From an uncultured bacterium (GTDB taxonomy: Bacteria > Edwardsbacteria > AC1 > EtOH8), in contig CALMGM010000012.1 of assembly GCA_937863685.1 (NCBI GenBank), positions 65,816-129,815 on the forward strand: a stretch of 64,000 bases of DNA, read 5' to 3'. Below are positions 2,825-4,214 of the stretch, piece after piece. The position numbers and the translations under genes are program-made. Within the stretch, counting starts at the first letter, position 1, and each line of letters begins with the position of its first letter. The notes beneath the pieces are model-generated. The model searched no databases. It was not told the origin of the DNA and worked only from the letters and a program-made list of their open reading frames with translations.

Positions 2825-3913
2825 CTATAGATCGTTTCGTCGCGCCCGGATCTCGGTCATGATCTCCAAAGATTTACGCTCCGCTTTGAGATCGCCGATC
2901 TGCCTAGAGATTTCCAGGCTACGAAGGGCATATTTCTCGGCCCGCTCAAAATCCTGCATCTTAAGCAGTACCTCGGCAATGTTTGTCAGATCGGCCTGCA
3001 GGCCCGCCTTATCTCCCAACTGGTTGTCGATCTCCAGGCCTTTTTCAAAATATGTCAGGGCCGTTGCAAGATCGCCTTTATCCTGATGAATGGTCCCGAT
3101 ATTGAAGATCGCCAGTCCGGCGGTTCTGATGTCGCCAAGTTTTCCGGCCATGTCCAGCTGCTTTTGATAATATTCAAGGGCCTGGTCATAATCCTTGTAT
3201 TCGCAGTAGACATTGCCGATATTGCCCAGGGCGACGGCAACGCTTTGCTTATCTCCCAGCTTTTCCGATATCTCCCAATGTTGTTGATAAAATTTAAGCG
3301 CCCGGTCATGAAAACCCTGGCTGTAGTATACGTTACCGAGGTTGCCCGCGCAGGCCCCCACCTGCCAAAGGCTATTATTTGTGTTCGATCGGCCCATCTG
3401 TATCAGATATATTTCTTCCGCTTCGGGATAGCGTCCCCAATTCCAGAGGACCACCCCGATGTTGTTCAAAGCGCGGAAAATCAAATTCGGGTCGGCTGCT
3501 TCCTCGGCGGCCGGCAGTGACATCCTGTAAAATTCCATGGCCTTTTCGAACTGGCCCTTGGACCAGTAAACCGTGCCCAAATTGCTGAGTATCCCGGCCA
3601 AAAGGCTCCAATCCCCGATCTCCTTAATTATGGCAAGAGATCTTTCCCTCAATTCCAGGGCTTCCTCATACTGCCCGCGCTTGGTCAGGATGGTTGCCAA
3701 GCCGTCCCTGGCTTGTGCGGAAATGCGCTGATCGGAATTCGCATCTCCCCAAACCAGGCACTTTCTGTATATTGCTTCAGCCGGGCCCCATTGGCCGGTC
3801 AGGCTGTATATCTCGGCCTTGCGCTTAAAAAGCGGAAACGGGAAATATCTTGTTTGAGCATTTTCCCCAGAGCCTTCATGCCACAATAAACCGATTTTAT
3901 ACTTACGATCCAA
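2825..3913 (-). CDS. Free-standing tetratricopeptide-repeat protein
   Basis: About 362 residues made almost wholly of TPR units with a period near 40 residues, repeated as GNIGNVYxxxxDYDQALEYYQKxLxxxxxLGD. No enzymatic domain, signal peptide or membrane segment is visible. The unit type is that of Rap/LGN-like TPRs, often attached to kinases or cyclases, so this may be a detached scaffold or a relic of a larger signalling protein. The start is TTG at 3913, preceded by a CGGAG ribosome-binding site at a good distance; no in-frame ATG gives a better N-terminus. It lies about 95 bases downstream of a 45-residue peptide gene and resembles the TPR protein at 52375-53841. Function unknown. Confidence 0.8.
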   Translation of the reverse strand: MDRKYKIGLLWHEGSGENAQTRYFPFPLFKRKAEIYSLTGQWGPAEAIYRKCLVWGDANSDQRISAQARDGLATILTKRGQYEEALELRERSLAIIKEIGDWSLLAGILSNLGTVYWSKGQFEKAMEFYRMSLPAAEEAADPNLIFRALNNIGVVLWNWGRYPEAEEIYLIQMGRSNTNNSLWQVGACAGNLGNVYYSQGFHDRALKFYQQHWEISEKLGDKQSVAVALGNIGNVYCEYKDYDQALEYYQKQLDMAGKLGDIRTAGLAIFNIGTIHQDKGDLATALTYFEKGLEIDNQLGDKAGLQADLTNIAEVLLKMQDFERAEKYALRSLEISRQIGDLKAERKSLEIMTEIRARRNDL

Positions 3914-4008: not shown

Positions 4009-4146
4009 TTATAAATTAGAATACTTAATCCGGCCGGGTCTTAAGGGATCATCCGAGTTACCGTAGCCTAACTCGTAGTCGTATTGATATCCTTCCCCAT
4101 CCTGGCCAACAATCTCTTTCAATTCATTCAGCCCCAGTATTTTCAT
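4009..4146 (-). CDS. 45-residue acidic, tyrosine-rich peptide; possible RiPP precursor or signalling peptide
   Basis: Encodes a 45-residue peptide that begins MKILGLNELKEIVGQ and continues into a Gly/Tyr/Asp-rich half (GYQYDYELGYG), ending in RIKYSNL. No signal peptide or membrane helix is visible. The first 14 residues resemble double-glycine-type leaders of bacteriocins and other secreted peptides (pattern LxxxELxxIxG), except that Q rather than G/A/S follows the glycine. Reality as a gene is supported by an excellent ribosome-binding site (AAGGAGGTG, about 6 bases before ATG), a near-consensus promoter 40 bases upstream and a strong hairpin after the stop. No modification enzyme or peptide exporter lies next to it. 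I do not recognise a family; the function is open. Confidence 0.75.
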   Translation of the reverse strand: MKILGLNELKEIVGQDGEGYQYDYELGYGNSDDPLRPGRIKYSNL

Positions 4147-4185
4147 AATACACACCTCCTTCCGAACGATCTATGAATTGGCTGT

Positions 4186-4214
4186 ATGATAGCAAAAATC
4201 ATAATGTTTGTCAA
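4186..4214 (-). promoter_or_regulatory. Near-consensus sigma-70-type promoter for the 45-residue peptide gene
   Basis: On the minus strand, TTGACA (4214-4209) is separated by exactly 17 bases from TATCAT (4191-4186). This is the best promoter match I noticed in the window. It lies 39 bases upstream of the peptide start codon, in the AT-rich gap behind umuC. Confidence 0.8.

What the first reader, a model, noticed from the sequence alone, without database searches (positions are those of the whole stretch)
4009..4214. Strongly expressed-looking gene for a 45-residue tyrosine-rich peptide
A near-consensus promoter (TTGACA-17-TATCAT), an ideal ribosome-binding site (AAGGAGGTG), a 45-codon frame and a 14-bp hairpin terminator form a complete compact gene. 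The peptide has a leader-like start (LNELKEIVG) similar to double-glycine leaders and a core rich in Tyr, Gly and Asp. It could be a RiPP precursor, bacteriocin or signalling peptide without an adjacent maturation enzyme. The position behind umuDC raises the possibility of damage-linked release.
Basis: partly seen in the sequence, partly recalled or inferred. Interest (0 to 1): 0.7.

Follow-up and report, generated by a model that had tools for sequence, protein, structure and literature searches.

The report
Exported-type leader peptide, Edwardsbacteria secretion family
The 45-residue gene is real and belongs to a previously unlisted family of small secreted-type peptides, scattered through genomes of the uncultured phylum Edwardsbacteria, that occurs only in genomes which also carry a matching peptide-cutting export pump; what the peptides do outside the cell is unknown.

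Summary
On the minus strand a TTGACA-17-TATCAT promoter, AAGGAGGTG, a 45-codon ATG frame (4146-4009) and a 15-bp hairpin form a stand-alone gene. It is not isolated: the genome (Candidatus Edwardsbacteria) encodes seven short peptides with the same leader (M-K-x-L-x3-E/Q-L-x2-I/V-x-G), each transcription unit with a near-perfect promoter. Three lie beside a C39-peptidase ABC transporter (PCAT) plus HlyD adaptor at another locus. Of ten held genomes of the phylum, the four with this PCAT have 4-12 such peptides each; the six without it have none. Orthologous frames show purifying selection, and core motifs recur between genera. Not supported: SOS-linked release, or a dedicated modification enzyme. 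Caution: this peptide's leader ends in Gly-Gln, not GG/GA/GS, so cleavage is unproven, and it has no ortholog at the umuDC site in the one congener that keeps umuDC. All cores are acidic and hydrophilic, unlike typical membrane-active bacteriocins. Best reading: divergent member of a new PCAT-exported peptide family, probably for signalling or cell-cell interaction; not filed as a canonical GG peptide.

The parts
4186..4214 (-). sigma-70-type promoter: TTGACA (4214-4209), 17-bp spacer, TATCAT (4191-4186), TG before the -10
   Evidence: the five transcription units of the paralogs examined (four in this genome, one in G003) carry 12/12 hexamer matches with 17-18-bp spacers
4153..4161 (-). ribosome-binding site AAGGAGGTG
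   Evidence: read directly
4102..4146 (-). leader MKILGLNELKEIVGQ: Leu-12, Glu-8, Leu-7, Ile-4 as in C39 substrates, ending in Gly-Gln instead of Gly-Gly
   Evidence: alignments; leave-one-out leader HMM ranks it ahead of all unrelated ORFs, E = 0.011 in 7,025 ORFs; strict leader pattern finds only 7 ORFs in 674 kb of this genome, all of this family, none in Markov nulls
4009..4101 (-). core DGEGYQYDYELGYGNSDDPLRPGRIKYSNL (30 aa, net charge -3, 5 Tyr, no Cys) plus stop codon
3959..3992 (-). 15-bp hairpin, likely intrinsic terminator (weak U-tract)

Best explanation
A stand-alone, probably constitutively transcribed gene makes a 45-residue precursor. Its 15-residue amphipathic leader is read by the peptidase domain of the PCAT encoded elsewhere in the genome (G000:C5:311516-313705, followed by a HlyD-type adaptor). 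The leader is cut off and the roughly 30-residue acidic, Tyr-rich core is pushed through PCAT, HlyD adaptor and an OEP/TolC-type outer-membrane channel. Outside, the core most likely acts in cell-cell signalling or interaction with neighbours rather than as a membrane-active bacteriocin. Shown: gene anatomy, leader homology, family, PCAT with intact C39 motifs, co-occurrence. Inferred: cleavage (at a GQ site), export, extracellular role.
For: Seven leader-sharing ORFs in G000, all with RBS; near-perfect promoters on all transcription units examined; three paralogs divergent from a 729-aa PCAT followed by a 407-aa HlyD protein; motifs of the catalytic triad C17/H91/D107 kept in all four PCATs; nearest full-length solved relatives are PCAT1 and ComA. 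PCAT of this type in G000, G003, G004, G007 only; peptides in the same four (7, 4, 12, 9) and none in the other six at E below 0.5: 4/4 against 0/6. Two paralogs pass curated cut-offs of leader models: TIGR01847 bacteriocin leader and NF033456 CCRG-2 RiPP. The leader fits the rules reported for C39 substrates: hydrophobic -4/-7/-12 and Leu(-12)-x3-Glu(-8)-Leu(-7) (PMC10885120, PMC6363468). Paired frames of the family under purifying selection; core motifs recur across genera. OEP channels are present.
Against: Position -1 is Gln. Papers report GG, GA or GS, and a narrow pocket at the cut; of the 20 peptides aligned, 18 end GG, one GS, one GQ. No ortholog of this gene is known: its site in G003 holds other genes, so selection on this very frame cannot be measured. 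The gene is far from the PCAT. No immunity, receptor or modification gene is identified. Co-occurrence rests on ten related genomes.
Confidence: 0.6

Rival explanations
1. A decaying or repurposed precursor: it descends from the exported family, but loss of the second glycine has stopped cleavage, so it is inert, stays inside, or only occupies the transporter.
For: Gly14-Gln15 (codon CAG) is at least two base changes from any Gly codon; the gene is absent from the syntenic site of G003; no detectable ortholog in nine other Edwardsbacteria.
Against: Promoter, RBS, frame, leader hydrophobics and hairpin are all intact, unlike a pseudogene; one other family member (G007) also departs from GG, ending in GS.
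Confidence: 0.2
2. A RiPP precursor whose tyrosines or other residues are modified (radical SAM crosslinks, or tyrosine sulfation as in RaxX-type sulfatyrotides) before export by the PCAT.
For: Tyr-rich acidic cores with D-Y pairs; SPASM radical-SAM proteins exist in the genome; PCATs serve several RiPP classes including sulfatyrotides (PMC10885120).
Against: SPASM proteins occur in all ten genomes including the six without peptides; YcaO is absent; no such enzyme was recognised beside the peptide clusters or PCATs (ORF lists, read by eye); a crude sulfotransferase motif scan of the fetched loci found nothing.
Confidence: 0.12
3. A bacteriocin or class II microcin released on DNA damage, linked to the neighbouring umuDC.
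For: Class II microcins use leader, PCAT, membrane fusion protein and TolC (PMC9746304); umuDC lies directly upstream on the same strand.
Against: All 30 cores examined are net negative (-2 to -9), 29 of 30 with negative GRAVY; no adjacent small membrane immunity protein recognised; own promoter; none of the paralogs is beside umuDC; G003 keeps umuDC without the peptide.
Confidence: 0.05
4. A regulatory small RNA, with the frame a chance.
For: Strong promoter and hairpin in a unit of about 250 nt; z = -2.36 for the whole transcript.
Against: The z-score comes from the hairpin; without it z = 0.34. No Rfam family. Leader pattern 7 against 0 in nulls and purifying selection in the family.
Confidence: 0.03

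Closest known systems
Double-glycine (GG) peptides exported by peptidase-containing ABC transporters (ComC/ComA, PCAT1 substrates)
   Same: Short amphipathic leader with Leu-12, Glu-8, Leu-7, Ile-4; many precursors with conserved leaders and diverse cores; PCAT with C39 motifs.
   Different: This peptide ends its leader in GQ; several precursors are scattered as stand-alone genes far from the PCAT; no receptor or regulator gene recognised.
Dirix-type GG leaders of Gram-negative and cyanobacterial precursors, consensus M(R/K)ELX3E(I/L)X2(I/V)XG(G/A) (quoted in PMC3140520)
   Same: MKELNRDELLKV(L/K)GG, the family's main leader, fits the consensus exactly; HlyD plus short-type PCAT present.
   Different: The window peptide departs at position 3 (Ile for Glu) and at the last position (Gln for Gly/Ala); no LanM, YcaO or SurA genes recognised nearby.
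NCBIfam TIGR01847 (bacteriocin-type leader) and NF033456 (CCRG-2 family RiPP)
   Same: Two paralogs in the same genome pass the curated cut-offs.
   Different: The window peptide itself has no hit.
Class II microcins (colicin V type)
   Same: Leader, PCAT, HlyD-type adaptor and an outer-membrane channel.
   Different: Cores short (15-42 aa), acidic, mostly hydrophilic; no immunity gene recognised.
Tyrosine-sulfated RaxX-type peptides (sulfatyrotides)
   Same: PCAT-exported, Tyr in acidic context.
   Different: No sulfotransferase found in the stretches fetched; resemblance only, not tested genome-wide.

Membership tests
PCAT-exported GG peptide | Leader ends in GG, GA or GS | tested here: not met
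   Gly14-Gln15; all 19 other aligned members end GG or GS
PCAT-exported GG peptide | Hydrophobic residues at -4, -7, -12 and Glu at -8 | tested here: met
   Ile12, Leu9, Leu4, Glu8 against the rules
PCAT-exported GG peptide | Catalytically plausible PCAT in the same genome | tested here: met
PCAT-exported GG peptide | Cleavage and export observed | not testable with these tools
   needs biochemistry
Edwardsbacteria leader-peptide family described here | Homologous leader, short frame with RBS, in a PCAT-bearing genome | tested here: met
   leave-one-out E = 0.011; pattern 7 against 0 in nulls
Radical-SAM or YcaO RiPP | Maturase beside the precursor or co-occurring with the family | tested here: not met
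Class II microcin/bacteriocin | Adjacent small membrane immunity protein | tested here: inconclusive
   neighbours are umuC and a TPR protein; an unlinked immunity gene cannot be excluded
Class II microcin/bacteriocin | Antimicrobial activity | not testable with these tools
   no activity data
Tyrosine-sulfated peptide (RaxX type) | Linked tyrosylprotein sulfotransferase | tested here: inconclusive
   crude motif scan of fetched stretches only, about a quarter of the genome
SOS-regulated gene | LexA-type operator shared with umuD | tested here: inconclusive
   upstream regions compared by eye only; the element shared by umuD of G000 and G003 is not seen before the peptide gene

The most novel reading that the evidence does not exclude
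Edwardsbacteria run a multi-peptide extracellular language: one PCAT exports 4-12 acidic peptides per genome, several from scattered strong promoters, with a limited set of C-terminal motifs (TGHFxGVDGL; DGKKxNPxEP; MPRRQPVWE; GAHSFHEI; Yx(G/C)RxxSYxxY-like) kept across genera as distinct messages or binding modules, and its C39 domain tolerates at least one non-glycine P1 site.
Probability: 0.25. Interest if true: 0.7.

Novelty: new variant of a known kind. Interest (0 to 1): 0.45.

Why it matters
Extracellular peptides of uncultured candidate phyla are almost undescribed; the two paper searches combining Edwardsbacteria with bacteriocin or RiPP returned nothing. Here a precursor set, its likely transporter and a clean presence/absence pattern are in hand, so substrate specificity (including the GQ site) can be tested directly with synthetic peptides and one purified domain. 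The set also shows that orphan small genes with strong promoters can be likely substrates of a distant exporter, which gene-cluster mining would miss.

Tried and rejected
Direct protein search of 98 genomes gave only chance-level hits outside the own genome; the paralogs appeared only through two weak own-genome hits and a profile. Pfam and NCBIfam do not recognise the window peptide. Rfam: only a tRNA in the window. Phage and plasmid collections: no match. TPR genes beside two of the G000 peptide loci suggested receptors, but TPR_12 matches number at least 128 in this genome, so adjacency is weak evidence. A second C39 match is a stand-alone 159-aa peptidase next to a 2,431-aa Rhs-like protein, not this system. 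A leader-pattern scan of genome contigs found close relatives only in Edwardsbacteria/UBP2.

Full report
OBSERVATION. The promoter is one of five 11-12/12 sites in 64 kb, against 0.4 expected. The hairpin has only a short U-tract and was not listed by the terminator scan.

SURROUNDINGS. Upstream on the same strand are umuC (IMS family) and umuD (Peptidase_S24); downstream on the same strand a 362-aa TPR protein, an SRAP protein and UvrC. UvrC was not put through a family search; it is named by reading its sequence.

THE PEPTIDE HAS PARALOGS. A search of the own genome gave two weak hits that proved to be short RBS-led genes with the same leader layout: MKILSKNELTSVMGG... (C5:409009) and MKKLGFEELSAIRGG... 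(C5:177592). A profile and a script then found MKELTLNQLKAICGG... (C5:562050) and three genes at C5:310761-311228. In 674 kb of the genome the pattern M[KR]x[LIVM]x3[EDQ][LIM]x2[IVLM]xG in ATG frames of 25-70 aa finds seven distinct ORFs, all these, all with an RBS; Markov nulls of the same length give none. The pattern was written with the family in view, so this shows specificity, not independent discovery. A leader HMM built without the window peptide gives it E = 0.011 among 7,025 ORFs, ahead of all unrelated ORFs. Every transcription unit examined has an 11-12/12 promoter with a 17-18-bp spacer.

THE TRANSPORTER. Three paralogs at C5:311 kb are divergent from a 729-aa Peptidase_C39/ABC_membrane/ABC_tran protein followed by a 407-aa HlyD-type adaptor. 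Motifs DCG/NHF/ADP (C17, H91, D107) are kept in four genomes; assigning these as the catalytic triad rests on general knowledge of C39 domains and on the statement in PMC9746304 that Cys, His and Asp are required. Full-length PDB relatives are PCAT1 and ComA. The block lies beside two tRNA-Ser genes in G000 but elsewhere in G003, with 88.8% nucleotide identity over 4 kb and no homologous flanks in the stretches compared apart from a short match.

DISTRIBUTION. Titles of close relatives name Candidatus Edwardsbacteria / UBP2; that the window's genome belongs there is inferred from its kinship to those genomes. Ten genomes of the phylum are held. A PCAT of this type is in G000, G003, G004 and G007; G006 has a short 187-aa C39 frame and G005 a sub-threshold fragment. 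Peptides: 7, 4, 12 and 9 in the four, none convincing in the other six. If genomes were independent, 4/4 against 0/6 would have probability 1/210 by chance; they are related, so the true evidence is weaker than that.

CODING AND SELECTION. Eight paired frames (five G004/G007 pairs, three G000/G003 comparisons) give pN/pS 0.17-0.80, pooled pS 0.46 and pN 0.15. Cores recur between genera: TGHFxGVDGL in G000, G004, G007; DGKKxNPxEP in G003, G004, G007; MPRRQPVWE and GAHSFHEI in G004 and G007, the GHF/MPRR/GAHS genes in the same order. All 30 cores examined are net negative.

THIS MEMBER. The window peptide keeps Leu-12, Glu-8, Leu-7 and Ile-4, the positions reported to be read by C39 domains, but ends Gly-Gln. 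Reported sites are GG, GA or GS. I therefore place it in the Edwardsbacteria leader family by homology, say it probably works like a GG peptide, and do not file it as one. G003, the only other held congener with this umuC (79% identity), has a 212-aa ORF and a 483-aa ORF between umuC and the SRAP gene instead.

FUNCTION. Export is the best-supported inference (0.6). Acidic hydrophilic cores, many parallel peptides and conserved cross-genus motifs fit signalling or specific binding better than membrane attack; this step is inference. Damage-linked release has no support. Dedicated modification has no support so far: YcaO absent, SPASM everywhere; a sulfotransferase was looked for only crudely and in part of the genome.

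LIMITS. Ten related genomes; no ortholog of this exact gene; no expression data; neighbours of other genomes' clusters were mostly judged by eye from ORF lists.

Noticed in passing
L039:2706-10432 (G000:C5 about 242.7-250.4 kb): A stand-alone 159-aa C39 peptidase sits directly before a 2,431-aa FG-GAP/Rhs-like protein whose N-terminal part carries a leader-like motif RRLSDREMEGIVGG.
   Followed up: partly
L062:2319-4159 (G004:C47): Lipoprotein-like ORFs among the peptide genes end in DW(A/S)Y(C/S)R(G/A)ISY(A/S)AYW, resembling the cores DETDWSYGRGTSYGDYY of PCAT-linked peptides in G000/G003.
   Followed up: partly
L147:4230-4310 (G004:C52:29230-29310): The string WAYCRGISYAAYW also occurs inside a large secreted-type protein frame of G004; origin of the shared string unexplained.
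   Followed up: partly
window 2825-3913; L043:9480-10421: TPR proteins lie next to two of the G000 peptide genes; TPR genes are very common in this genome, so this may be chance.
   Followed up: partly
L037:10537-14932; L068:7146-11195: The PCAT/HlyD/peptide block occupies different genomic sites in G000 (beside tRNA-Ser genes) and G003, as a relocated unit of about 4 kb.
   Followed up: partly
L122:3748-5490 (G000:C5 about 81.7-83.5 kb): A second umuDC pair exists in this genome (UmuC 57% identical to the window's).
   Followed up: no
window 30334 and 24995, minus strand: Two other 12/12 promoters in the window precede ordinary-looking larger genes, not leader peptides.
   Followed up: partly
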